Assembly (NCBI GenBank): GCA_014634225.1
Contig: BLFN01000196.1
Location: 6,826,365-6,838,864 of the forward strand
Direction: 5' to 3'
Source: Acropora yongei
Lineage: Eukaryota; Cnidaria; Anthozoa; Scleractinia; Acroporidae
Length of the DNA: 12,500 nt
A program made the position numbers and the translations under genes. Below are positions 1 to 12,500 of this stretch, piece by piece. The notes under the pieces are model-generated. The model searched no databases, had not been told where the DNA came from, and saw only the letters and a program-made list of their open reading frames with translations. The stretch's first letter is position 1, and every line of letters begins with the position of its first letter.

Positions 1-42
1 TAGGGGTCTAATAATAATAGTCATCGAGTAGCGAAATTCGGC

Positions 43-92
<50 letters not shown>

Positions 93-130
93 GCTAACGT
101 TATTATTGCTTTTTTCTGTCCGACTAGTTG

Positions 131-140
131 GGTGATACTA

Positions 141-173
<33 letters not shown>

Positions 174-187
174 AATCAATAGCCCAT

Positions 188-224
<37 letters not shown>

Positions 225-257
225 TTTCGGGCTACGGGTCTAATTGTTAAATAGCAC
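131..257. repeat. Foldback (inverted-repeat) element with nested hairpin
   Basis: A 13-base arm, aacaattagaccc at 142-154, is matched perfectly by its inverse, gggtctaattgtt at 236-248. The similarity continues imperfectly outward to about 131 and 257. Inside lies a second inverted repeat, caatagccca (from about 177) against tgggctattg (to about 213), centred on a short ttcggcc-type loop near 190. The whole segment would fold into a long hairpin. I recognise this GC-rich ttcggcc/gggctattg pattern as a common dispersed non-autonomous repeat in corals, from memory only. It abuts the start of the tandem exon array. The first base block of the window (taggggtctaat) resembles the arm end and may be part of a neighbouring copy. 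Confidence 0.75.
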
Positions 258-726
258 CCCTTCCTTCCTTAAATTACTGCTTTAATCAATCAGCTGTAGA
301 GTTGACCGGCTTAAATCACTTTTGGTTTTAGCTTGTTATCGAGTGAGTCAAAGATTATATAAAAAGGGTTTCAAATTGATCTTTGAATAATAAGAAAAAG
401 AGCAAAGGTCACAGAAAAAATACCAAGGCAACCAGACACTCGAAAGATAAAAACAAGAAAAATAGCACAGAAACACAACCGTAATCATTCTAATAAAGAA
501 ATAAGAGAGAAAGGATTTAGGGATTTTTTCTTCCAAATGGCACGAGGATTATATCTCTCCTGATCTCTACACCCAAAATCTGCCCAACTTTGAGTCTCGC
601 CCAGCCGAATTTAGCAGTAGTTAACTAGAAGTCCCCGTTTCAAGAGACTCATAGTTAATATTAGCTAATTTATATTGCAGGAGTAGAAGATTGATAATTG
701 ACCAAATGACATTTCTCTATATCTAG

Positions 727-777
727 CATCTATAGCTTCAAATCAAATGCCCTTCCCAACACCGGCTTTGTCATCGG
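727..777 (+). CDS. Linker mini-exon 1 (Ser/Thr/Pro-rich stalk, phase 1-1)
   Basis: A 51-nt exon between acceptor ctatatctag and donor gtaagtg. It begins and ends in phase 1. The leading CA completes a GCA alanine codon with a preceding G, and the body reads SIASNQMPFPTPALSS with a final G for the next codon. The same length, phase and boundaries recur in four further copies, and match the D8C exon (3515-3907) downstream. Likely role: one block of a flexible, possibly O-glycosylated stalk between extracellular domains (inference). A second frame (ATC TAT AGC, IYSF...) is also open, so the frame rests on phase agreement with neighbours. The previous exon lies outside the window. No homologue is known to me for this peptide. 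Confidence 0.6.
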
Positions 778-997
778 GTAAGTGATAAATCCGTGCGTTT
801 TGCTCTTGTCTGTTTAGTGACATGGCGTCGAAGCGGCCTTAAGAATCTTGCATGTTTTGTGACCTAGCTTCGAACCAGTCGGACAAGAACTTGTCTCTAC
901 TTCCTTGCTGCTTTAAATCAATCAGTAATTATAGTCATCAATGATTGTAAATTGGGTTCGTGCAATATTTGACTAAACGACATTTCTCAATCTCTAG

Positions 998-1048
998 CAT
1001 CTATAGCTTCAAGTCAAGTGCTCATCCAAACACCAGCTTTGTCATCGG
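998..1048 (+). CDS. Linker mini-exon 2 (phase 1-1)
   Basis: Second copy of the 51-nt exon, with acceptor tcaatctctag and the strong donor gtaagtaa. The body reads SIASSQVLIQTPALSS in the phase-1 frame. It differs from copy 1 at a handful of bases and has no stop. The intron from copy 1 is 220 nt and shares a segment (attgggttcgtgcaata) with the intron before copy 3. Downstream of the donor the sequence happens to stay open to 1261 (MRFQSCLF...). That stretch is intron-like in all sister units, so I do not count it as coding. Confidence 0.6.
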
Positions 1049-1345
1049 GTAAGTAATAAACCGGTGCGTTTTCAGTCTTGTCTGTTTAGTCAGCTGGCTT
1101 CGACGCCTCAAGGATCTTGCATGTTTTGTGACCTAGCTTCGAACCAGTCGGGCCAGACTCTTGTATCACAGCACTCTTTACTTCCTTACTGCTTTAATCA
1201 ATCTAGCTCTAGAGTTGGCTGTTGCTTGACTTTCCAGGCAAAGAAATACAGAAATGGTTAATTTAATATTGAATCAGTAATTACAGTCATAAATATATAT
1301 TGGGTTCGTGCAATAGTTGACCAAAGGACATTTCTATATCTCTAG

Positions 1346-1396
1346 CATCTATAGCTTCAAGCCAAGGGCTCGTCTCAACACTAGCTATGTCACGGG
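1346..1396 (+). CDS. Linker mini-exon 3, most diverged tandem copy (phase 1-1)
   Basis: Third copy, 51 nt, acceptor ctatatctctag, donor gtaagtg. The body reads SIASSQGLVSTLAMSR, the most altered of the tandem set: Val to Gly, two prolines lost, and a terminal Arg. It is still open with the length kept at 51. Splice signals are intact. The following 791-nt intron carries the foldback insertion at about 1541-1781. Divergence with an intact frame and intact sites fits a low-constraint linker, but would also fit early decay. Confidence 0.55.
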
Positions 1397-1540
1397 GTAA
1401 GTGATAAATCCATGCGTTTTTCCCCTTGTTTGCATTGCTTGGTGACCTGGCGTCGAGGCCTTGAGAATCTTGCGTGCTCAGTGATCTAAGTAGCGTAGGA
1501 CCAGTCGGCCCGGGATATTGTCTCACAGCACTCCTTTTTT

Positions 1541-1781
1541 CCTTGATTGAAAAAGATCATCTGGGTGTTTGCAGCCCTAAGAAGAACTGTTGTTTGCGAC
1601 TGACATTTCGACAACCTGCGCGGAAACCATCTTCAGAGTCAAGTGACTTCACTCTGAAGGTGGCTTCCGCGCAGGTTGTCGAAACGTCAGTCGCAAACAA
1701 CAGTCCTTCTCAGGACTCCAATCACCCAGATGATCTTTTTCAATCAAGATATGTTGCTCCTGGGTTCAAACCATTTTCTTA
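1541..1781 (+). mobile_element. Foldback non-autonomous element, copy 1 (nearly complete)
   Basis: The element begins ccttgattgaaaaagatcat and its inverse, atgatctttttcaatcaag, occurs at 1730-1748. Between them the two arms pair over most of their length, including cgacaacctgcgcgga against ccgcgcaggttgtcg. The centre is at the gagtcaagtgac region near 1640. Past the right arm it continues through tgggttcaaacc to ccattttctta (about 1781), an ending shared with copy 2. Near-direct repeats flank it (actcctttttt before, actcttttgtt after), a plausible degenerate target duplication. It interrupts unit 3 of the exon array at a point where the other units are continuous, so it arrived after the array formed. 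The ggttcaaacc block resembles a tRNA B box (GGTTCGANNCC), hinting at a SINE-like origin (weak). Confidence 0.8.
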
Positions 1782-2187
1782 CTCTTTTGTTCCTTACTGC
1801 TTTTATCATTTATCAATCAGCTGTAGAGTTGACATGTTTCAATCACTTTGAATTATCACAAAAAGAGTAAAGGTCACAGGGATAATACCGAGCCAACCAG
1901 AGAGCTCGAAATATTAGAAGAAAAAGCACAAACACGACAGTAATCATTCTAATAAAGAAATAAGAGTAAAAGGATTAATAGATTCTTTTTCCCAAATGGC
2001 ATTAGGATTATATCACTCTTGGTTTTTACAACTAAAATCTGCTCAACCTTGAGTCTCGCCCAGCGTGAATTTAGCAGCCGTTCGCTAGAAGTGTTTGTTT
2101 AACGAGGCATAGTTGCTAGTTGATAAAGAATTATCATTGATTATATGTAATAGATTGATAGAATGACATTTTCCTGTATCTTTGCAG

Positions 2188-2235
2188 CTATAGCTTCAAC
2201 TCAAGTGCTCGTCCCGAAACCGGCTTTGTCATCGG
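2188..2235 (+). CDS. Linker mini-exon 4 (48 nt, phase 1-1, shifted acceptor)
   Basis: Fourth copy. Its acceptor has changed from tctctag to ctgtatctttgcag, which moves the splice point three bases in. The exon is 48 nt instead of 51 but still phase 1 at both ends. G plus CT gives alanine, then IASTQVLVPKPALSS. The one-codon shortening that preserves frame supports this as a used exon read in this frame. Donor is gtaagtg. The 702-nt intron that follows contains a truncated fifth unit and the (TTA)n tract. Confidence 0.62.
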
Positions 2236-2569
2236 GTAAGTGATAAATTTGTGTGTTTTGCTCTTGTCTGTTTAGTGAGCTTGCCGCGTCAAGGCCTTAA
2301 GAATCTTGCGACCTAGCCTCAACCAGTCGGCCCGGGGATATCAGAGTACTCCTTGCTTCCTTACTGCTTTGATCAATCAGCTTTAGGGTTGACATGCCAC
2401 AATCACTGTTAGTTGTTATCTGTTATCGAGTGACTCTGGTCAAAGAAATGCAGAAAATGGTTTCAAGTAGTTTACCTCAACATATTAAGCTATTTGATCT
2501 TTTAATTATCAAAAAAAAATTGTAAAAGTCACAGGCACAACTCCCGGGCAGCAAAGAGCTCCATTTATC

Positions 2570-2570
<1 letters not shown>

Positions 2571-2622
<52 letters not shown>

Positions 2623-2627
2623 TATTT
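2571..2627. repeat. (TTA)n microsatellite
   Basis: About 19 units of TTA, 57 bases, with one interruption (attactattattt) near the right end. It sits in the intron between linker exons 4 and 5 and coincides with the point where similarity to the tandem unit ends. Confidence 0.97.
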
Positions 2628-2937
2628 AAAAAAGGCAATAGTAATTATTTATCGAATACCTAAAAAGGGAGAGAAAGGATAGTTTTTTTTTCCAAACGGA
2701 ATTTACAATTGGTTGACTCTAATTTTGTTTTCAGGTCGTCTCTATATATTTCAATTTCGACTTTTCATTCAGCAATTTGCTCGAAGAATGAAATAATTGC
2801 GCTGCTACAAAGGCCTCTGAAAACAACTGCAAAAAGCACTCTTGAAAATCTACACTGCACTACAATGAGGGAAAAAAACTTAAAAACTTATTTCTTTGAA
2901 TCGAAATGACGTGTGATTGAATTGATTTGTCTCCTAG

Positions 2938-3000
2938 CGGTTCCTGTTGTTTCGGATGCTTCATTGTCGATTGTGAATCCTACAAGTGCACCTCCCTCAG
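2938..3000 (+). CDS. Linker mini-exon 5 (63 nt, diverged, phase 1-1)
   Basis: Bounded by acceptor attgatttgtctcctag and donor gtataac. The phase-1 reading is open for 63 nt: G plus CG gives alanine, then VPVVSDASLSIVNPTSAPPS, then a G. Ser, Pro and Thr dominate. Its C-terminal half lines up with the tandem linkers (A-S at the start; P-T, A, S near the end), suggesting an older member of the same exon family. Splicing its last G to the next exon (AA TGT) creates Glu-Cys, the usual entry to a D8C domain, so the junction is natural. The donor is weaker than the gtaagt of the tandem copies. Confidence 0.6.
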
Positions 3001-3398
3001 GTATAACTACATAACAAATGCAGCAGTTTAAAGCTTTTGTCTGTACAAAAAAAAACGCACATCTGCAACGTTTTACTTGTGCTCGAAAGGACAATCGTTT
3101 TAGTCCCAAGAAGAAATGGGAACAGGTCCTAGAGATTACTCTCAGAACGAAACTCGAAGTCATCTGAACGAACTGGTATGGAAACAAGTAAGCACGACAA
3201 AAAGTGATTGTCTGTTGCTCGCCGAGGTAGACTACTGACTGCAAATAGCTATTACTATATGACACCAATGTCCACCCTCCCCGCCCTCTGAACGTGACTT
3301 CCTCGAATAGAAGCAAAGATTTTTAGTTCAACCGTACGATTAATTTTCTGCAATAGTCTTATTGCAACTATACTTACAATAAAATCATGTGGTATGTT

Positions 3399-3466
3399 AC
3401 ACGAGCGTCCACTCAGCAATATACTTTGTGGAAAAAAAGCGTCAATTTAAAGTTGGACGTTCGTGT
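3399..3466. repeat. Short imperfect inverted repeat in intron before the D8C exon
   Basis: acacgagcgtccac at 3399-3412 pairs with ttggacgttcgtgt at 3453-3466 (12 of 14 bases), with a loop of about 40 bases. It may be a relic of a small foldback element or an intronic hairpin. No target duplication was identified. Confidence 0.5.
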
Positions 3467-3514
3467 GTTGCTCAATGCCCTAAAATCATCTTTGGAAAAA
3501 ATACCCTTTCGCAG

Positions 3515-3907
3515 AATGTTACAATTATGCAGTCCTCGATGAATCCAACAGAGCAATAACCTACAGAGGTGTCACTTACTTTTGCGACAATCGACTATCC
3601 GGTTGGTACAGATTCCTCGGCGAAGCTGGAAGCAAAATGTCCAATTCATGCGTTACTGGGCGACTATGTGGAGCGAATAGGCCTGGGTGGCTAGTTGGTG
3701 ATCACCCTTCAGTTTCTGAGGGAGTTGCTAGGAGACGAGTTTGCTTTGCCAGTTCCAATTCCGGTGGTTTGCTCGCTACGTCTTGCTGCCGATGGTCAAC
3801 TTACGTAATGGTGCGTAACTGTGGGACATTCTTTGTTTACAAACTGCATAGCCCACCTGCCTGTAATTTACGTTACTGCGGCGACGGAATACCAACAACG
3901 ACACGAG
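3515..3907 (+). CDS. D8C (D10C) cysteine-rich domain exon, uromodulin/GP2-like
   Basis: A single 393-nt exon, phase 1 at both ends, encodes a complete D8C domain of the kind found in uromodulin, pancreatic GP2 and many cnidarian secreted or surface proteins. Order of landmarks: ECYNYAVLDESNRA, CDNRLSGWYRFLGEAGSKM, CGANRPGWLVGDHPSVSEGV, RRRVCF, SCCRW, VRNCGTFFVYKL, ACNLRYCGDG. Ten cysteines are present including the CC pair, the count given for the revised name D10C. Acceptor is tttcgcag at 3507-3514. A later AG at 3532 would cut off the first Cys, so the earlier site is chosen. Donor is gtaagat. The exon follows a linker exon and is followed by two more, so it is a domain flanked by stalks. 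Oddity: the loop between VCF and SCC (ASSNSGGLLAT) is longer than the usual few residues. No stop or frameshift. Confidence 0.94.
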
Positions 3908-3953
3908 GTAAGATACTCTGTCCTCTATTCTGATGTTCAAAAGACCTAGAAAG

Positions 3954-4073
3954 GAGAAAGAGAGGGGTTCACCCTTGAAGTCAATTTTACGCTTTTAATG
4001 GCTGCTTGTACATGATGTCTCTCGTAGCGAATATGATGAAAGTGTTAATGAGAAGCAAACCCCTCTCTCTCAC
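3954..4073. repeat. Imperfect inverted repeat (gagaaagagaggggtt / aacccctctctctc)
   Basis: gagaaagagaggggtt near 3954-3969 is matched by its near-inverse aacccctctctctc at 4058-4071, about 90 bases apart. It lies immediately before the detached copy of the tandem unit. It could be a small MITE; both arms are low-complexity, so chance is possible. Confidence 0.4.
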
Positions 4074-4084
4074 AACTTGCTTAC

Positions 4085-4385
4085 ACTACCATTCCTTGGC
4101 ATGGATTTACTAAGGATAACTTTACTTCACCTTGGCTTTTACAATCAAGATCTGCTCAACTTTCGTTGAGTCTCCCCGGCAGCACGAATTTGTGGAGCAG
4201 TCGTTGACTAGAAACGGTCTCTGTTTGACGAGGCATAGTTGCTACTCTTTATTCTAGAAGTAAAAACAATGATCATCAACTATATAATAGGTTGATCAAA
4301 TGACATTTCACTATCTCTAGCATCTATAGCTTCAAGTCAAATGTTCGTCCCAACACCGGCTTTGCCATCGGGTGAGTATAACAAC
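4085..4385 (+). repeat. Detached copy of the tandem exon unit
   Basis: From about accattccttggcatggattta, through ctgctcaactttcgttgagtct, gacgaggcatagttgctac and gttgatcaaatgacatttc, this stretch aligns with the second half of unit 4 (about 2000-2190), then continues into linker exon 6. Similarity stops within about 15 bases after the donor, unlike the other copies. It lies on the far side of the D8C exon, about 2.1 kb from the previous copy. This means that exon duplication was not limited to head-to-tail neighbours, or that a D8C-bearing segment separates older copies. Confidence 0.75.
4321..4371 (+). CDS. Linker mini-exon 6 (phase 1-1), after the D8C domain
   Basis: 51 nt, acceptor tttcactatctctag, donor gtgagta. 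The body reads SIASSQMFVPTPALPS, very close to the tandem copies upstream. The D8C exon ends in a lone G that joins CA to give alanine, so the domain runs ...TTR-A-SIASS without a break. This placement, directly after a recognisable domain in the same phase, is the best evidence that the family is coding and read in this frame. Confidence 0.65.
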
Positions 4386-4411
4386 TCACGCCTTTACATT
4401 CTCTATGTATT

Positions 4412-4533
4412 TGTACTTTATCAACATTATAAAATGCGAGCGAGCAATAATTGCTTTTGCGCAAATGTACTTTATCATCATTATAGAATGCGAGCAAGAG
4501 GCAATAATCCCAAACTAGTCACTTTTGCACAAA
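4412..4533. repeat. 54-bp intronic tandem duplication (about two copies)
   Basis: tgtactttatcaacattataaaatgcgag... starts at 4412 and recurs at 4466 with tgtactttatcatcattatagaatgcgag..., both running to a ttttgc(g/a)caaa block. The second copy has an extra segment of about 15 bases. It lies in the 400-nt intron between linker exons 6 and 7. Confidence 0.85.
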
Positions 4534-4771
4534 AGTTTATGTTAATTTTGCTGCCGTGGTCGCAGTTACTCTTTGATCGATCTTTTTACAATGCATTGCA
4601 ATTGTTATGATACATGACAATTGGGCTAAGCGTTTTTGCGAATTTGGACGTGCGATCCCAACTTCTTCTCAGCTAGGTATTAATCTACAAATTGTGCTCT
4701 GACATTGGGGGGTCTTTGTTTTGTATTCATATCTGTAACCTAATCATCGTGCGTTTCTTTTTCCTCTCTAG

Positions 4772-4822
4772 CGTTGGCTTCTTCTAGTGCTGTTCTTTTG
4801 TACACTTCGTCTTTGTCTGATG
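4772..4822 (+). CDS. Linker mini-exon 7 (older paralogue, 51 nt, phase 1-1)
   Basis: Bounded by a very strong pyrimidine-tract acceptor (gtttctttttcctctctag) and donor gtatgta. Exactly 51 nt like the tandem copies. G plus CG gives alanine, then LASSSAVLLYTSSLSD, then G. Against linker 6 it matches at about half the positions (SS, VL, T, LS) although its introns show no similarity, so it is an ancient duplicate. Its final G joins AT of the next confirmed exon (5995) to give Asp, leading straight into the ZP domain. The same length despite sequence divergence argues for selection on stalk spacing or frame. Confidence 0.62.
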
Positions 4823-5994
4823 GTATGTAATAAGTTTCAGCCGGTCTGCAAACAGATTGAACTTGAGTTATAAATGAATCGCAAAAAGTCGACAAAAAGA
4901 GTAATTTAAAAGGAAACTTATTAAGGGAAGAATTCTTTTAAAAAAGTAAAATTTTATTCAGGTTTAAAGCAATTCCCGAATTTCACTGCAATCAAGCAGA
5001 AAAGAGACCGAAACAACACGACCGCCTGAATTCGAAAGGTGATATTGAATTATATGCTTATTCGTTTCAAATGCGTTTTTCAAATGCGTTTTTCAAATGA
5101 GGATTAATGGCATGTTTTGGCTAAAACTGGATTGTCTCGCTGACTTTGTCTTTCTTGCAAAAAGAACAGGACGGGGAGACGCAACCAATAATCAAGGCCG
5201 ATATCAATATCTTCCCAGGGTTCCAATGTGTGCATAAAAATTTTGACATTCAGTTGCTTGTAAATAACTGTTCTTTGGGATTTTGAAGTTTTCTTGAAGT
5301 CGCTTACCCAAATTCAAATGTCTTGAAATGGGATAGGAAAGAGTAAATACAGTAGCTCTCAAACATCTCAAAAAAATGTCTCTCTTATCAACCCTTTTTT
5401 CATATTGCTTTTGTGCAGTGCGTAGTATCTTAAGGTAAACTTTCAGGGTACCACCTCTTTAATTTATTTGCGTGAACTTGAGCCTGGGCTCGGTTTGTTG
5501 AGATATTTTTAAAACGTTAACTACTCGTTTCGCTCAGCTCCGGTTCGCAATGGTTGTCATTTTTGGCCACCTCAATTCATTTTCATTCTTTCCAGGATTC
5601 GCATTATAACGCATGAAAGCGAAAAAACAAGGCCCCCTATATCCAATGCAGTGGACCTCTCTCATTTTGAATGTTGCATTGAAGTATCCACTAACATTTT
5701 AGTAGTCGTGTTGACCCTATTGGGAATTTGTATTCTAAACAGCAGAAATGTCAAAACAGCCATCATTCACAAGGATGGTTTTGTTAAAATACCAAATTTG
5801 GAAGATCAACTCCTTGGTTCCAACATGCCGGTCTTGATTTCCTGCCAAATTTTGAACTCCTTATGTCTTGAACGAAAACTGCCCTCTGCGTACTCGAGAC
5901 AACGCCTCTTCCATGTTTCCGCTTAATGCCCAACAACAGATAAACGTGTTATTTGTAGAAACGAAACGGCTTAATCATTTTTTTTCATTCTTAG
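4823..5994 (+). other. Intron between linker exon 7 and ZP exon 1
   Basis: 1,172 bases, GT (gtatgta) to AG (tttttttcattcttag). It holds a short 13-bp tandem repeat (5068-5099) and an open stretch from an acceptor-like tttccag at 5595 to a stop at 5926, with a hydrophobic run (ILVVVLTLLGICIL). That stretch is in phase 2, lacks family similarity and has no fitting donor, so I leave it as intron. No other exon with phase-1 ends was found here. Confidence 0.6.
5068..5099. repeat. 13-bp tandem repeat (caaatgcgttttt, about 2.5 copies)
   Basis: caaatgcgttttt at 5068 and 5081 and the start of a third copy at 5094. Intronic. No further role visible. Confidence 0.9.
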
Positions 5995-6190
5995 ATAACA
6001 GCAACGCGTCTTTTCTCTTGTGCTTGCCAAATACAATGATGATTAGGATACCACGAGACCGTCTGCTTTCCCACTTGCAATTGGACTCGAGTCAGCTTCA
6101 TCTGAACGATCCTGGATGTGGCGCCTTCAACGTCGATAAGAAAAATGTCGTGCTGAGAACTTCATTAACGGGTTGTGGTACGGTGCGGAG
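5995..6190 (+). CDS. ZP domain exon 1 (ZP-N half)
   Basis: A 196-nt exon, phase 1 at its start and phase 2 at its end (AG before gtatgta). It encodes the first part of a zona pellucida (ZP) polymerisation module. Landmarks are ASFLLCLPNTMMIRIPRD, LHLNDPGCGA and LTGCGTVRR: Cys 1, Cys 2 and Cys 3 of the four conserved ZP-N cysteines, in the expected order and spacing. ZP modules drive assembly of extracellular filaments or matrices in uromodulin, tectorins and egg-coat proteins. Acceptor is a long T-rich tract ending ttcattcttag. The reading is open and undamaged. It joins the preceding linker exon in phase 1 and ZP exon 2 in phase 2 (AG plus G gives Arg). Confidence 0.92.
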
Positions 6191-6295
6191 GTATGTAATC
6201 ACCACTACGAAACAGCTTGTCAGCGTTGGATACAATTGACCTTGTTGTATTCCGCCTCTCGAGTTAAATTTTTCAAGGTGGTCTACGTTTTCCTC

Positions 6296-6620
6296 ATAGG
6301 GAGCTAAAAGCCAACCCCGACGACGACAAGAACGTCAAAAAATTACATATTTCTCAATGACAAAAAGTATTTTTGGACGCTTTGCATTTGCTTTTGTTGT
6401 CGTCGTCATTTTCTGTACATTTCGCAATTGTTCTCGTCCAATCCACGACGCAGAATGACCTGTTTTGTTGGTGCTCACATTTGGGCGACATGAGTACCTG
6501 ACGAAAAGCTTGTAAATTTTTCTTTCTATCTCGAAGCTAGTGATACCAGTCTAATTTCAGGATGGTTAGTGTACATTTTCAGACGACGTTATCATTGTCG
6601 TCGACTTCAATTTCTTGATT
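6296..6620. repeat. Probable dispersed repeat with gacgacgacaa / ttgttgtcgtcgtc arms
   Basis: cgacgacgacaagaac near 6318 is inverted as ttgttgtcgtcgtc near 6396, and a further gacgacgttatcattgtcgtcgac block lies at 6583-6605. The surrounding text (acgtcaaaaaattacatatttctcaatgacaaaaagtattttt, then tctatctcgaagcta) is of a type that I recall as highly repeated in coral genomes. It sits inside the 1,200-nt intron between the two ZP exons. Boundaries are approximate, and the family assignment is memory only. The rest of this intron to 7390 shows nothing that I can name. Confidence 0.45.
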
Positions 6621-7390
6621 AAATTTCCAGGGATAAATGCTCTTCTTGAAGACCACAAACCAACCGAATCCAGATCAACTAAAACCTATGGGTTACTGCT
6701 TAATTATAAGTTAGGGAAGAAGCCTCTGGTGGCAGATAAGAGCACTGAACAAATAAGTTTATTTGATCCGCCCTCAAGGACTAACAAAGGTTACATTAAA
6801 TTTGCGCTTCCATTAACGCCTCGCCCCTCCCAAAGCCAAGCACTTAGAGTCGAGCCCTGAATCGTATTCAGCTTTACTAATTTTACTGTTTAATTATGGT
6901 CTAATAGAATTTTTCTGGAGCTCAAAATTTCAATCTGAGTCATACTACTGTACTTATTTCGGTCCGCCCCTCGCAACGGTTATTGAGTTCTTAGCCACTT
7001 ATTGTTATGGTAATTAGTTCTGTTTTCATTATGAATGACAACTGATATTCAAAAGAAGGACTTCGTAGTCAGGCTCGATTTGAAATAGAGCCTGAAATGA
7101 ACGCAAAAATGACCAAGAGGAACCGAATGACGACGTGGGAAAGGGATCTGTTCCATGTTATAAGGACCGACATTTCTCTTTGATCCACGCGTGCGGTCAT
7201 TTTCCTGAATTCTAATGCTCACTGTATATGAGACAGAATAATTGAATGTTGGGAGATCACCGGTCTCGTCTGTTTCGTCGACGTTATTGAGGGATAGAAG
7301 ACATCTTCGAGTAAGCTATCGGCTTCAGTGTGCTTGCTTTTATGTTACACCAGATTCACTAATGGATTGTTCAACTCATTTTATCCTTAG

Positions 7391-7553
7391 GTTTATCGGT
7401 GGAAAAACTTCGTTCCACAACAACGTCGTTATATCTCCAGGAAACAAGCGTTCAATCGTTCGCGTTCCGTTTCAGTGTTCCTACAGCAGATATGGCTTGC
7501 CTGGAGTTGGAATCAGAGGAAAATCTTTTTCAAATTAAGCATAATGGGTGAGC
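7391..7553 (+). CDS. ZP domain exon 2 (end of ZP-N), apparently frameshifted
   Basis: Acceptor cattttatccttag. The first G completes the AG left by ZP exon 1 (phase 2), giving ...CGTVRR-FIGGKTSFHNNVVISPGN, then SIVRVPFQCSYSR. This is the usual continuation of ZP-N with its fourth cysteine (FQC). After CSYSR the frame runs YGLPGVGIRGKSFSN to a TAA at 7536-7538. No good donor precedes the stop. In the next frame, from about 7491, the sequence reads MACLELESEENLFQIKHNG and ends exactly at a consensus donor (ATAATGG then gtgagc at 7554). That reading resembles the end of ZP-N and the interdomain start in uromodulin-type proteins. I infer a one-base indel near 7487-7500, either a real lesion or an assembly error. 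Exon identity is firm; the end is less so. Confidence 0.83.
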
Positions 7554-7645
7554 TATGAAGATTGCATGGTTCTGCTGGAACTAATTTTTTTGGAGAGGCT
7601 GGCTAGTTGAGTGGGAGCGAAAATCTTTTTTGGGGAAAAGTTACT

Positions 7646-7647
<2 letters not shown>

Positions 7648-7713
<66 letters not shown>

Positions 7714-7758
7714 GATCTATAAGTGCCCTGAGCACTCATTCGGCCGTTAAGGGGTTAA
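7648..7758. mobile_element. MITE, TTAACCCTTT-ended family, copy 1
   Basis: Ends are ttaaccctttccc (7648-7660) and ttaaggggttaa (7747-7758), roughly inverted. The interior includes gttccccattgacgagtaaaatcgtctggcgttagacagagta. The same element, inverted, is at 12156-12265. I recognise the interior as a very abundant short coral repeat (from memory). It lies in the intron after ZP exon 2. Confidence 0.85.
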
Positions 7759-7761
7759 AGA

Positions 7762-7841
7762 CATTTTTCCATAGATGGCTATTCGTTATTATTTTTGCTT
7801 AGGCATTTTTCCATAGATGGCTATTCGTTATTATTTTTGCT
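7762..7841. repeat. Perfect tandem duplication, period 42
   Basis: A 38-base block from catttttccatagatggct to ttatttttgct occurs at 7762-7799 and identically at 7804-7841. Perfect identity points to a very recent slippage or an assembly artefact. It lies just outside the MITE's right end. Confidence 0.97.
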
Positions 7842-8098
7842 CGTTCATTGAAATTGATAGAAGTCACCAATTGCTAGTTATTGACAGTAGTCGCACGTTA
7901 ATTTCAATGCTATTAAAAGAACGCGACGCTAGCTTCGGTTGCGCAAGTTTACTATATTTGATTTACTATTTTGGCATAAAGTCAACAATTATCACCACAA
8001 GCTAGCTCTTATGCGACAGATGATGCCTGTGGAAAAAAGAAAAGCCATACAAACTGAACTGTTACGTTTTCTAACATAATTCGGTTTCTTTTTTCCAG

Positions 8099-8147
8099 GT
8101 CACAAATGAAGATTTTTCCTTCCTTAAGCTATAATCTTTACTCTTAA
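8099..8147 (+). pseudogene. Possible remnant of the ZP-C exon, cut by a stop
   Basis: A strong acceptor (ttcggtttcttttttccag, 8080-8098) is followed, in the phase 2 that ZP exon 2 would supply, by GSQMKIFPSLSYNLYS and then TAA at 8145-8147. The MKIFPSLSYN..Y pattern resembles the first strand of the ZP-C half (in uromodulin a similar M-x-[LI]-F...SY..Y segment). It is about six residues short at its start, and none of the later ZP-C cysteines follows. A foldback element is inserted immediately after (8169-8356). I read it as a decayed exon. It could equally be chance intronic sequence, with the true ZP-C exons lost or elsewhere. Confidence 0.35.
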
Positions 8148-8154
8148 TTCTTAA

Positions 8155-8166
8155 TACGTGCAATTA

Positions 8167-8222
<56 letters not shown>

Positions 8223-8255
8223 GGGTGATTGGAGTCCGCCATCTTCAGAGTCAAG

Positions 8256-8292
<37 letters not shown>

Positions 8293-8370
8293 GTCAGTCA
8301 ATAACAACAGTCCTTCTCAGGACTCCAATCACCCAGATGATCTTTTTCAATCAAGGTACGTGCAATTAAA
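8155..8370 (-). mobile_element. Foldback non-autonomous element, copy 2, with 14-bp target duplication
   Basis: tacgtgcaattaaa occurs at 8155-8168 and again, perfectly, at 8357-8370, flanking an insert of about 188 bases. The insert holds ggtttgaacccaggagtaacata (8179-8201), then ccttgattgaaaaagatcat, and its inverse ending at 8355. It is the same family as 1541-1781 but with the single-copy tail (tgggttcaaacc...attttctta) on the left, hence opposite orientation. The left arm is shorter than in copy 1 by some 50 bases. A 14-bp target duplication is longer than typical cut-and-paste MITEs give and fits target-primed (SINE-like) insertion or an unusual transposase. Confidence 0.87.
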
Positions 8371-9500
8371 TTTATGAAAATAAAATTTGTCTGTGTACCG
8401 TGTTTGGGTCACGGTTTTTTTTTAGCTTAATTGTCGTTTACATCTACTTTAATTTCTCGAGTCCAGGTAAGGAAATGACGTTACCACGAAATCCTCGAAA
8501 CTGAAGAAAAAGGGGTAGTATTGCAGGATTGGATAATTACAATCACAGTCTAGTTTGTATCAAGTTAATAGAAACCTTGCAATAGAGGAATACAGGCTGA
8601 TTGACCCACGTCCACGTACATCCACGCATGCAGTAAAGCCAACTGCATCCTATACTGTACTGCAAAAATGCTTCTCTTTGCTGCCATCTAATCCGTTGTG
8701 TATTTCAGTGGTTTTAGACAACTCGTGTTCGGTAAAAATGAGAGGTTTCTCTTTCCCAATGGGCGAGATCAAAATTTTCTTGATGGAGCTTAAGTGCAGT
8801 TGTGCGCGTGACAAGGACGAGGACGGCAAAGCAGTGAGGAGAATGGCGAGGAGATCATTTGCGCGGTCATTTCCCTGTGCGCTACAATTATTGCACCCAC
8901 TTTGCAACTGTCGGGAATCTTGCCGTCAAACTGTGATCGTCTAATATCCAATCTAACCTGAGAGTTTACTATACTGATTTATTTATTAACCCGCGTATAA
9001 TCAATTTGACGGGAGATCTTATTTCGCCTAACACCCATTTATGGATTTCAATTCTCTCAGATTTTCGTCACACTGAGGTGTTATTCTTTTTATCCCTTCA
9101 GATATTTTTCCCGAAATATTTGAAGACGTTTACGAACGAATCTAAACGGGCATGCGTGGTCCATAGCTAGGTTCGTCGATATTATCTCGGCAGCATTACT
9201 TGAATGGATTGCTAAAATAGTTCTTATACTGTCCTGGAAAGTCTCTTGTATGTATGAAACCAAGGTACGATGGGTATCACAATTGTCGTGAGGAAGATAG
9301 GAAATAAATTGCAGTATTGGGTAATTAAAATCACATTTAAATTTTTATCAAGGTAATTGAAACCTTGTCTTAGCGCCATGAAATAGCTTTTCAGTTTACT
9401 GTCCTGGAAAGTCTAATGTATGGATTAAACTAATGTAGGATGGATATCGCATTTGCTGTGACCATACTAACTATGCTGTGAGTGAGATAGGAAATAAATT
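8371..9500. repeat. Intergenic stretch with two diverged direct-repeat pairs
   Basis: Pair one: 8520-8579 and 9308-9366 share ttgcag(ga/t)attgg.taatta.aatcaca ... atcaag.taat.gaaacctt. Pair two: 9227-9310 and 9397-9500 share tactgtcctggaaagtct ... taggaaataaatt, the second copy carrying a small insertion. The copies interlock, so a unit of several hundred bases was probably duplicated and then rearranged. An open frame at about 8555-8944 and one opposite have no recognisable domain. I do not call a gene here. Confidence 0.7.
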
Positions 9501-11928
9501 TTGAAGACTTCGAAGTGATTCAGAAATGCAGATCACTGTTGATCAGGCTTTGAGAAAAGCCATCTCTAGGGTATTTTCGTTGGCCTTGTTAGTCTAGGAT
9601 GATTCCTTTAGATAAGTTGTCGAACGGGATTAGGAATTGGGGAATCTCTTAGTCTCGTCTGCTACCGATTTGGAGACAAATGCTTTTACGTGTTCTGTAG
9701 CTATTGCACCATAAGATGCCAGATCCGCAAAAAATCGTGGGAAAAAAAAACCAAAATCACGACTGAAATGGACAATCAGTTGTGTCAAATGACAGCAATC
9801 GAAACTTGAATGATTGAAACGATACGTCCAAGTTCCAGTTGTTGAAAGGTTTGGGACGGTGCTGCCTGGCACATAAGAGCTATAAATCCTATTGAGTTAC
9901 CTGATGCGGGCAAAGCAAAAGACAAGCTAAAACCAAAGCTAAGAGTGCTTTGAAAAGTACATCTGACCTTTTCACGTGATCCGAGCTGAAAGATTAAACC
10001 ACCTGAAATCCTTTACACCAATGACGTCAAACTCAACTTTTTGTATTCAAACGAGAACAAAGAAGGCTTAAGCGTGAGGTATACAACTGAAAACTCAGGC
10101 TAGTAGCTAGTAGTCATTGAAATGCTGATTTTACGCCAAAGTCACTGTTTAATCACTCAGACTAATTGGTGTACATTTTCCCAAGTGACATCAGCCTCAT
10201 TACAGCCAAATTACATAAAATCATTAAACACATTGAAAAGGAATCCACCAGAACACAAGCTTTTGTTATACAACCAGTGCACAGTTTTATCCTATTGATT
10301 CTAGGACAGAGCTAAATACCACCTCCTTTGTAAGACGAGTTTAACATAAAAGGAATTCAATGTGGAGGACAAAAGAGCTTTTCAACAGATAAAGAAACGA
10401 CCAATTTATTCCAACAAGTTTCCTTTTAGATGGATAACATTTACATCATTAAAATTGAGCAACCTTGACTCCTGCCAGAAAACAAATTATTAATTCATGA
10501 TAGTTCATTTTACAACCACTTCAAGAGCACCCCAATGTAACAATTCTGCTCTAAGAAGCCAAAAAGAATGCAAGGAGAGAAATACCGCGAGGGCTAAACG
10601 AGAAATAAAGTGGTTAACTTTTTCTTAATTAAAACTAATTACCACCATGAAGACTTAATCTACTTTGGAATATCATTTACATACACTGATTTTGCGACCA
10701 AACCACCCAATACCACAGATCCCACCTCTTTCACTAGACAAGTCTCAAGGCCTCTATTTGTGAATTCTGAGTGAAACGATGGATGAACGATAACAGAGGT
10801 CTCAGAAAACTAGAGTTGGTGTTTGAGTAACGCAAGGGTTTCCGTTTCTTGTACATTTGATCTGTAAACTGTTTTCGCACGCTTTGTGATTGAATAGGCG
10901 TCGGCTGAAGTTAACGATAATGTTGGTATTTCAGAGTTCCTAACTTTTTAACTCACACTCAAATTACGACTGAAAAACGCCTTAACTGCTTGAAACAAAT
11001 CCAATTTAACGGGACACAACATTTCTAAACTAAAACCGCACAATGCTGTTTTTAGAAGGTTGAGGTTTCCATCAGTTTTAGAATTAAACGACTGGCTTTC
11101 TTATTTGCATGCAGGAGGGAATTCTATAGCTCATGAATTCGTCTTTGCATTCAACATATTTGAATCTCGTCCACTCCACCAGTAAGAACAATTATTTGGG
11201 ATTTATAACTGGGCGTAACGTGCGAAAAAGTGAGCATAAAGTTTGTGAGACTCTAGTTGGTTATACGGTGGATGTGCTTCTGTGTGACAACTACTCATCA
11301 GGGAGGGATTAGTCTTGTTCGCAGCTGACAATGTACCTGAAGAAAAAATAGCAGAGCTTGAATCTGAAGTGTTAACTAGACATAACAATCGCTTCATTTA
11401 AATCTCAGTAAATTTAGCTGGGCACAGTTGCTTTACTATAATTGCGGAGACTAAACATCAAACTAAATCAAAACAAATCAAATCAAATTTTTGTTCTTGT
11501 CGAGTTCTTGCCTATGTGAGAACTCACGTATAACCATGAGAAACACTTCGTATGAATTTCGAGGCATTTTCGTCATAGTCGCTTCGCTAACGGCGGTTAG
11601 TTTGCCTAAAAATGCCTAAAAAGGTTTTTCTAATATCCACAGCGAATCCTTGATGAATAAGTTATGTGTTGTTGATCAATATTGACGCAAATCTGCTAAA
11701 GGAATAAATCAATGTCGCAACATATAAGAGGGTAACATCAACAAAACTATTCAATCAAACAGCCACTAAAATCATTTAACTCTTTGGCTGAGCTTGTACG
11801 CAGAGGGCAATTCTGCCTCCCACCTAGTTGCCTTCATGGCATGGTTTATCCTGTCAATGCTCCCAAAAAGCCCTCTAAAGGGTAAGATCAATCAAGTGAT
11901 TTGATCATATTCACATGTTAATTTGCAC
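9501..11928. other. No gene recognised (about 2.4 kb)
   Basis: AT-rich sequence between the two convergent genes. The 3' UTR of the minus-strand GCLM should begin at 11928 and run leftward. I did not find a convincing polyadenylation signal close to the stop. Short open frames (for example 9630-9872 and 11203-11397, minus strand) show no domain, splice logic or composition that supports coding. Confidence 0.6.
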
Positions 11929-12110
11929 CTAAGAAATATAAAATATTATTATTATGCGATATCCATACTCGTACCCTTTATTTTTGATGACTCCACGACA
12001 CTTCACCAGCACCGAATACCTCAGGGCCCAAACTGGTTTCCATCCTTGAACCTGGCTATTTGCACAGCTTTCGGTCAACACCTGCTCCAGACTTTCCTTA
12101 TTCAGTATGT
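11929..12110 (-). CDS. GCLM: Glutamate-cysteine ligase regulatory subunit, last exon
   Basis: GCLM is the modifier subunit that lowers feedback inhibition of glutamate-cysteine ligase, the first and limiting step of cytosolic glutathione synthesis. Read on the minus strand, this exon begins at 12110 after acceptor gtccttctttcag, in phase 1. It encodes DILNKESLEQVLTESC, then GWKPVWALRYSVLVKCRGVI and KNKGY. This matches the conserved GCLM C terminus (vertebrate W-P/V-LWLLRYSVIVKSRGIIKSKGY). The last residues, EYGYRIIIIFYIS before TAG, are not conserved and derive from an ATA-repeat stretch, unlike the short basic tail of vertebrate GCLM. The gene is convergent with the D8C/ZP gene. Confidence 0.94.
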
Positions 12111-12155
12111 CTGAAAGAAGGACACAGAATAGCTCACATACATCCCACCTATATC

Positions 12156-12265
12156 TCAACCTTTCACTCCTGCAAGTGCCACTGACACTAGATTTTACAC
12201 TAGCTGTCTCATGCCAGACAATTTTCACTGGTCAATGTGGAACACGTTGGAAGTGAAAGGGTTAA
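12156..12265. mobile_element. MITE, TTAACCCTTT-ended family, copy 2 (inverted)
   Basis: Ends are tcaacctttcactcc (from 12156) and gtgaaagggttaa (to 12265). The interior reads caagtgccactgacactagattttac ... gccagacaatttt, the reverse complement of the interior of 7648-7758 with scattered changes. It occupies about 40 percent of the 265-nt last GCLM intron and leaves the splice sites untouched. Confidence 0.85.
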
Positions 12266-12375
12266 TTAATACATGGGTGGATACCCTTTGTAGCAAGCCT
12301 CAACCACAAACTGTAGACAACACGAAAACTAAGAATTGAGCGTTAAAATGAGGTTTTTTCAAGACAATGAAATAC

Positions 12376-12436
12376 CTTTTGGATCAGCATGTGTCAGCAA
12401 CTGGATATCATGTTTCTCACTAAATTGCACAAGATC
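12376..12436 (-). CDS. GCLM: Glutamate-cysteine ligase regulatory subunit, penultimate exon
   Basis: A 61-nt minus-strand exon between acceptor cattttattgtag and donor gtatttc. It starts in phase 0 and ends in phase 1. It encodes DLVQFSEKHDIQLLTHADPK, matching the GCLM segment whose vertebrate form is ...FAKQFDIQLLTHNDPK. Its last G joins AC of the final exon to give DILNKES, mirroring the vertebrate ELLSEAS. Together the two exons identify the gene clearly although the N-terminal aldo-keto-reductase-like part lies beyond the right edge of the window. Confidence 0.95.
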
Positions 12437-12500
12437 CTACAATAAAATGTTCCAAAAGAGAAATGATCATTTTGAATTCTGTTCCATTGAAAAGATACAT

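What the first reader, a model, noticed from the sequence alone, without database searches (positions are those of the whole stretch)
727..4822. A family of seven phase-matched 48-63 nt linker exons encoding a repeated Ser/Thr/Pro-rich stalk
Seven tiny exons (727, 998, 1346, 2188, 2938, 4321, 4772) all start with C after AG, end with G before GT, and are divisible by three with phase 1 at both ends. They flank a D8C domain exon whose ends are also phase 1. Spliced in a row they give blocks such as ASIASSQVLVPTPALSS. Every junction recreates an alanine (GCN), or the correct first residue of a domain. Any number of them can be skipped or included without loss of frame. This looks like a genomic device for tuning stalk length between extracellular domains, by copy number in evolution or by alternative splicing in the animal. 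I know of no described family with this peptide.
Basis: partly seen in the sequence, partly recalled or inferred. Interest (0 to 1): 0.82.

Follow-up and report, generated by a model that had tools for sequence, protein, structure and literature searches.

The report
Coral uromodulin-like gene with modular stalk
A coral gene related to mammalian uromodulin carries a row of tiny interchangeable exons that code for a flexible spacer, so the spacer can be made longer or shorter without spoiling the protein; this is a neat new example of a known trick rather than a new kind of system.

Summary
Seven mini-exons (727-777, 998-1048, 1346-1396, 2188-2235, 2938-3000, 4321-4371, 4772-4822) have AG/GT borders, lengths divisible by three and phase 1 at both ends, as does the D8C exon 3515-3907. 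The gene is Acropora-like and uromodulin-type (D8C, then ZP-N). Annotated Acropora proteins contain six of the seven spliced blocks at the predicted borders; 4321 has only a 14/17 relative. Two models of one A. palmata locus are identical except that one lacks 88 residues, exactly five stalk blocks; two A. muricata models differ only by three residues, as an in-frame second acceptor 9 nt downstream predicts. All five duplicated exons here carry such a second acceptor.

Corrections: five exons are close duplicates (introns included), 4772 is a distant relative, 2938 a different block. The predicted junction 3907-4321 appears in 0 of 5 models; those end in a tiny terminal exon, for which the window has a match at 8099-8109. 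The peptide shows no purifying selection between copies. No RNA reads were seen, and the window's own genome could not be searched. The principle is known (IgG3 hinge, titin PEVK); this is a new instance with a second, finer length step.

The parts
727..777 (+). stalk mini-exon A, ASIASNQMPFPTPALSS, phase 1-1; second in-frame acceptor at 736
   Evidence: 15 of 17 residues as in P0001 block ASIALNQMPFTTPALSS
998..1048 (+). stalk mini-exon B, ASIASSQVLIQTPALSS, phase 1-1; second acceptor at 1007
   Evidence: block b in P0001, P0006, P0007, P0010
1346..1396 (+). stalk mini-exon C, ASIASSQGLVSTLAMSR, phase 1-1; second acceptor at 1355
   Evidence: block c in P0006, P0007, P0010, absent from P0001 and P0008
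2188..2235 (+). stalk mini-exon D, AIASTQVLVPKPALSS (48 nt) or, from acceptor 2194, ASTQVLVPKPALSS (42 nt)
   Evidence: 4 of 4 annotated relatives with this block use the short form ASTQ
2938..3000 (+). different stalk block, AVPVVSDASLSIVNPTSAPPS, 63 nt, phase 1-1, just before the D8C
   Evidence: present in P0001, P0006, P0007, P0008, P0010
3515..3907 (+). D8C (uromodulin-like) domain exon, 393 nt, phase 1-1, ten cysteines
   Evidence: PF23283 at 52.6 bits, cut-off 27; GP2 and uromodulin in the PDB; 92-93% identical to the last D8C of P0001, P0006 and P0008
4321..4371 (+). stalk mini-exon E, ASIASSQMFVPTPALPS, phase 1-1; second acceptor at 4330; lies between D8C and ZP-N
   Evidence: not seen itself in any retrieved model; 14 of 17 residues as in block l7 (and as in block b)
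4772..4822 (+). diverged stalk mini-exon, ALASSSAVLLYTSSLSD, phase 1-1, before ZP-N
   Evidence: homologous block joined to ZP-N in P0002, P0009, P0011, P0012
5995..6190 (+). ZP-N exon, first half (phase 1 start); donor about 6190
   Evidence: PF23344 at 58.3 bits, cut-off 24.7, over the joined exons; 72-74% identical to P0009 and P0002
7391..7538 (+). ZP-N exon, second half, with stop; ends ...CSYSRYGLPGVGIRGKSFSN, no ZP-C
   Evidence: same early end (GLPG + short tail) in P0002, P0009, P0011, P0012
8099..8109 (+). candidate alternative terminal exon GTCACAAATGA, giving G-H-K-stop when joined to the D8C exon
   Evidence: the only match in the window to a pattern made from the three annotated tails; equals the tail of P0008 (-19 sequences)

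Best explanation
The window holds the 3' part of a secreted or extracellular uromodulin-like gene of a coral close to Acropora. Between its folded modules (D8C domains, then a ZP-N half-module or a short tail) lies a spacer encoded by a row of small exons that all begin and end in phase 1. Shown in sequence: the borders, the phases, the duplications, the second acceptors. Shown in database gene models of relatives: blocks are joined at these borders, whole blocks are present in one isoform and absent in another of the same locus, and a 9-nt second acceptor removes three residues. Inferred: because each block starts with two bases of a codon whose first base comes from whatever exon lies upstream, any number of blocks can be skipped or duplicated without loss of frame, so stalk length is set in steps of 17 residues by exon number or skipping and in steps of 2-3 residues by acceptor choice; the peptide is an unstructured, Ser/Pro/Ala-rich, probably O-glycosylated spacer whose exact sequence matters little. 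Least certain: that the length differences are regulated and used by the animal.
For: Exon borders and phases; chance scan 12 of 15 against 0.02 in shuffles. P0006 and P0007, both LOC141896321 of A. palmata, are identical except for 88 residues that are exactly five blocks; P0011 and P0012 of A. muricata are identical except for ASI, which CATCTATAG as a 9-nt acceptor shift predicts. In that palmata locus the block before C begins with T after block l7 (P0006, P0010) and with P after a D8C (P0007); in P0001 it begins with A, as a hybrid phase-1 codon requires. Stalk before the last D8C, measured from YCGDG to ECYNY: 163, 75 and 144 residues in P0006, P0007, P0010. Within the five duplicates the first 15 nt of the exon vary at 1 of 15 columns against 17 of 36 for the rest (p = 0.009), and variable columns by codon position are 8, 7 and 3: the acceptor region is kept, the peptide is not. 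Exon D has lost the ancestral AG by a one-base deletion and gained an AG that leaves the exon 3 nt shorter, still in frame.
Against: No RNA read was seen; the isoforms are predicted models, and which of them rest on reads is not shown. In the four duplicates A-D the downstream intron is about as similar as the exon (first 60 nt: 0.74-0.87 against 0.76-0.88), so recent segmental duplication or conversion explains much of the likeness; only E has a conserved exon (0.78-0.90) with a diverged downstream flank (0.53-0.58). Amino-acid change exceeds silent change in 9 of 10 pairs (counts are tiny), so nothing shows selection on the peptide. Exons 4321 itself and junction 3907-4321 appear in no retrieved model. 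Differences between species can be exon loss rather than skipping.
Confidence: 0.85

Rival explanations
1. Evolutionary length variation only: the mini-exons multiplied by segmental duplication and are spliced constitutively; the isoform differences are gene-model noise or minor splicing errors without function.
For: Introns were duplicated along with the exons; paralogue-to-paralogue change is mostly amino-acid changing; isoforms are database predictions; models of A. digitifera and A. palmata appear to chain modules of two neighbouring paralogous genes (compare N-termini of P0001 and P0009), which may be modelling artefacts.
Against: Within-locus differences fall exactly on block borders and on the second acceptor, and the second acceptor lies in the part of the exon that varies least.
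Confidence: 0.4
2. Dispersed repeat: the unit is a transposable element whose sequence happens to look like an exon.
For: Several copies with flanks in one window; the window also holds unrelated inverted-repeat elements. Copy number elsewhere in the genome could not be checked (genome search did not complete).
Against: The blocks are joined to D8C and ZP-N domains in annotated proteins of three Acropora species; a search with the stalk array returned 7 proteins among 7,987 scored candidates, all from this Acropora family.
Confidence: 0.04
3. Decayed gene: this copy is a pseudogene and the exons are relics.
For: ZP module stops after ZP-N; the window D8C lacks the N-glycosylation sequon NYT that the last D8C of P0001, P0006 and P0008 has; exon 1346 has drifted (SR in place of SS at its end).
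Against: All splice sites and frames are intact; all ten cysteines kept; the early end after ZP-N is shared by 4 of 4 ZP-N-bearing models (P0002, P0009, P0011, P0012).
Confidence: 0.06

Closest known systems
Human IGHG3 (IgG3) hinge exons
   Same: A spacer between extracellular domains made of near-identical tiny exons; 2, 3, 4 or 5 hinge exons give 32, 47, 62 or 77 residues (PMC8674132, passages), i.e. steps of 15 residues against 17 here.
   Different: Length varies by exon copy number between alleles; cysteine-rich hinge of an antibody. The coral blocks have no cysteine, vary also between isoform models of one locus, and carry a second acceptor.
Titin PEVK region
   Same: Short, highly repetitive exons, many alternatively spliced isoforms, length tuning of an unstructured spring (PMC6469411, abstract).
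   Different: Intracellular muscle spring with Pro-Glu-Val-Lys composition and far more exons; no relation in sequence is claimed.
Symmetrical (phase 1-1) exon shuffling and skipping in animals
   Same: Phase 1-1 exons are prevalent also in Nematostella, and skipping of symmetrical exons keeps frame (PMC6335736, passages).
   Different: Usually whole folded domains; here the modules are 16-21-residue linkers.
In-frame tandem acceptors (3, 6 or 9 nt; NAGNAG type)
   Same: Second acceptors 6 or 9 nt downstream in all five duplicates; such events are described (PMC2279118, search listing with abstract start only).
   Different: The listing says human coding sequence is under selection against them; here they recur in every copy of one linker cassette.
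Uromodulin / GP2
   Same: D8C domain and ZP-N.
   Different: The retrieved Acropora models have several D8C domains, S/T/P linkers, no EGF or full ZP domain in their precomputed Pfam lists, and end after ZP-N or after a D8C.

Membership tests
D8C_UMOD domain proteins (PF23283) | profile score above the curated cut-off | tested here: met
   52.6 bits, cut-off 27; ten cysteines
ZP-N domain (PF23344) | profile score above the curated cut-off over the two joined exons | tested here: met
   58.3 bits, cut-off 24.7
Full ZP-module polymerising proteins (uromodulin type) | complete ZP module (ZP-N plus ZP-C) | tested here: inconclusive
   The window frame stops at 7536-7538 soon after ZP-N; my Pfam query ended there, so ZP-C was not in it; the 4 ZP-N-bearing Acropora models list PF23344 but not PF00100
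Symmetrical phase 1-1 exon modules | length 3n and phase 1 at both ends | tested here: met
   8 of 8 exons
Symmetrical phase 1-1 exon modules | skipping or inclusion without loss of frame in transcripts | tested here: inconclusive
   seen in gene models of relatives; no reads available
In-frame tandem acceptors | two AGs a multiple of 3 apart, both usable | tested here: met
   5 of 5 duplicates have the two AGs; use of both is seen in the model pair P0011/P0012 of a relative, not in this species
IgG3-type hinge | hinge of an immunoglobulin heavy chain with cysteines | tested here: not met
   no Ig domain found; no cysteine in 122 linker residues
Titin PEVK | Pro-Glu-Val-Lys-rich composition | tested here: not met
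   122 linker residues: S 26%, A 17%, P 11%, L 11%, one K, no E

The most novel reading that the evidence does not exclude
A two-step length dial for an extracellular stalk: each 51-nt cassette can be added or skipped (17 residues), and within each cassette a conserved second acceptor trims 3 residues (2 in one copy), while alternative ends choose between a ZP-N half-module and a bare tail. In colonial corals, with many cassettes per gene and neighbouring paralogous genes, this would give a very large set of stalk lengths from one locus, possibly differing between polyps, tissues or individuals.
Probability: 0.3. Interest if true: 0.6.

Novelty: new variant of a known kind. Interest (0 to 1): 0.42.

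Why it matters
It gives a clear, testable case in a non-bilaterian animal of spacer length encoded as interchangeable mini-exons, in which the peptide drifts while frame and acceptor region are kept. It also concerns an abundant but uncharacterised coral family: uromodulin-like proteins have been linked in corals and anemones to skeleton formation, settlement and wound healing (PMC4320547, PMC5755313, PMC4229989; passages), though none of those passages names this gene.

Tried and rejected
Rejected: a frameshift or assembly error in the ZP-N exon at 7391. I first suspected one because another frame continues past the stop, but 4 of 4 ZP-N-bearing Acropora models end in the same way (GLPG plus a short tail). 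Rejected: all seven exons as one family. Weak or negative: selection on the peptide; conservation of exon over downstream intron among copies A-D. Search with the stalk array returned only 7 Acropora proteins, but it is not exhaustive: P0001, which holds such blocks and has a length in range, was not listed, and only 7,987 candidates were scored. Literature: searches gave no description of this gene or linker; locus names searched gave 0 papers.
Full report
The observation. All eight (727-777, 998-1048, 1346-1396, 2188-2235, 2938-3000, 3515-3907, 4321-4371, 4772-4822) have AG before and GT after, lengths divisible by three, and phase 1 at both ends. Because the last base of each is G and the mini-exons begin with C, the joined codon is GCN, alanine; at the D8C exon it is GAA (E) and at the ZP-N exon 5995 it is GAT (D). 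A scan for small exons gave 15 candidates on the + strand of 1-5000; 12 of 15 were 3n, C-to-G and open in phase 1, and all 12 belong to the seven exons (five counted twice for a second acceptor). Controls: 0 of 2 on the reverse strand, 0 of 8 in 5001-12500, 300 shuffles with mean 0.02 and maximum 1. The scan was designed after seeing the exons.

What the exons are. Five (727, 998, 1346, 2188, 4321) are duplicates of one cassette, with intron sequence copied along: 39-46 of 51 nt identical over the 10 pairs. 4772 is a distant relative (22-26 of 51 nt, p = 0.0015). 2938 is a different block. Among copies A-D the downstream intron is about as similar as the exon; copy E has a conserved exon and a diverged downstream flank. 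Non-synonymous exceeds synonymous difference in 9 of 10 pairs, on tiny counts, and variable columns by codon position are 8, 7, 3. So the peptide drifts; frame and borders do not. In exon 2188 the ancestral acceptor AG has lost its A and a new AG has arisen so that the exon is 3 nt shorter and still in frame.

A second acceptor. In all five duplicates a second AG lies 9 nt (6 nt in 2188) inside the exon, in frame. The 15 nt that include it vary at 1 of 15 columns, against 17 of 36 in the rest of the exon (p = 0.009).

The gene. The D8C exon matches PF23283 (52.6 bits, cut-off 27) and exons 5995 and 7391 together match PF23344 ZP-N (58.3 bits, cut-off 24.7). The closest solved structures are GP2 (7p6r, 2.9e-26) and uromodulin (6tqk, 2.3e-23). 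Protein searches found annotated proteins of Acropora muricata, A. palmata (LOC141896321) and A. digitifera (LOC107343379); the window D8C is 92-93% identical to their last D8C, and the ZP-N exons 72-80% to theirs. The lower ZP-N identity, and the two N-termini MWHFRSLA (P0001) and MWRFQSLA (P0009), suggest two neighbouring paralogous genes, with the window in the second; this is inference.

Splicing in relatives. I parsed nine models into blocks. P0001 joins A-B-D-2938-D8C (no C); P0006, P0007 and P0010 join B-C-D-2938-D8C; P0008 joins A-2938-D8C. P0006 and P0007 come from one locus and are identical but for 88 residues, exactly five blocks; P0011 and P0012 are identical but for ASI, the three residues that the second acceptor removes; P0009 and P0011 differ by a D8C with its linkers and by GVLFSS near the N-terminus; P0006 and P0010 differ by one substitution and one 183-residue stretch that includes a D8C. 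In the palmata locus the block before C begins with T after block l7 and with P after a D8C, as expected if its first codon borrows a base from the exon upstream. The same peptide also occurs elsewhere in that gene, so a different but identical exon cannot be excluded for P0007. Stalk length before the last D8C is 163, 75 and 144 residues in P0006, P0007 and P0010. For block D, 4 of 4 models use the short form, so in relatives the acceptor equivalent to 2194 is preferred.

Ends. The 5 models that hold the window's D8C end in GYK, GHK or AHK straight after it; none continues to 4321. The only match in the window to a pattern built from these tails is 8099-8109, GTCACAAATGA, which gives GHK-stop as in P0008. 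The exons 4321, 4772, 5995 and 7391 are intact, and their homologues (block l7, z4772, ZP-N) are joined in P0002, P0009 and P0011, and in P0012 with the trimmed form of l7. So I read the window as having two alternative ends: D8C to 8099, or D8C to 4321-4772-ZP-N. The second is not shown by any model.

Mechanism and function. Shown: borders, phases, duplications, second acceptors, and isoform models of relatives. Inferred: stalk length is set by block number or skipping (17 residues a step) and by acceptor choice (2-3 residues a step). The linkers are S 26%, A 17%, P 11%, T 6% with four charged residues in 122, fitting an unstructured, possibly O-glycosylated spacer. That RNA reads underlie the database isoforms is what I recall of such annotation; no call shows it.

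Known context. IGHG3 hinge exons vary from 2 to 5, giving 32 to 77 residues (PMC8674132, passages). Titin PEVK has short repetitive, alternatively spliced exons (PMC6469411, abstract). Phase 1-1 exon shuffling is reported as prevalent in Nematostella too (PMC6335736, passages). In-frame tandem splice sites of 3, 6 or 9 nt are said to be selected against in human coding sequence (PMC2279118, listing only). So the principle is known; the coral family, the peptide and the pairing of cassette skipping with a repeated second acceptor are, as far as searches show, not described.

Limits. The window's own genome could not be searched: ten requests to the genome search did not complete. No reads were available. 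The species is inferred from protein similarity only.

Noticed in passing
1542-1748 and 8196-8361: Two related inverted-repeat elements: arms of 103 nt (91% complementary, 1 nt apart) and of 42 nt (98%, 82 nt apart), both with the motif TTGATTGAAAAAGATCATCTGGGTG; they look like foldback or MITE-like mobile elements in introns.
   Followed up: partly
7762-7841: A 42-nt unit present 1.9 times with 100% match.
   Followed up: no
153-237: A 39-nt unit repeated 2.2 times, 78% match.
   Followed up: no
3515-3907: The window D8C has no N-X-S/T sequon, while the last D8C of P0001, P0006 and P0008 has NYT near its start.
   Followed up: partly
related proteins P0017, P0018, P0023: Montipora D8C proteins also carry repeated Ser/Pro/Thr linkers of another sequence (AMSSSPVTPSTLASFSSLP-like), perhaps a parallel stalk array; seen by eye only.
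   Followed up: no
related protein P0024: A Stylophora protein named FGF receptor-like combines D8C with kinase domains in its precomputed Pfam list.
   Followed up: no
related proteins P0002, P0006, P0007, P0008, P0010: Models of A. digitifera and A. palmata seem to chain modules of two neighbouring paralogous genes, either read-through splicing or a modelling artefact.
   Followed up: partly
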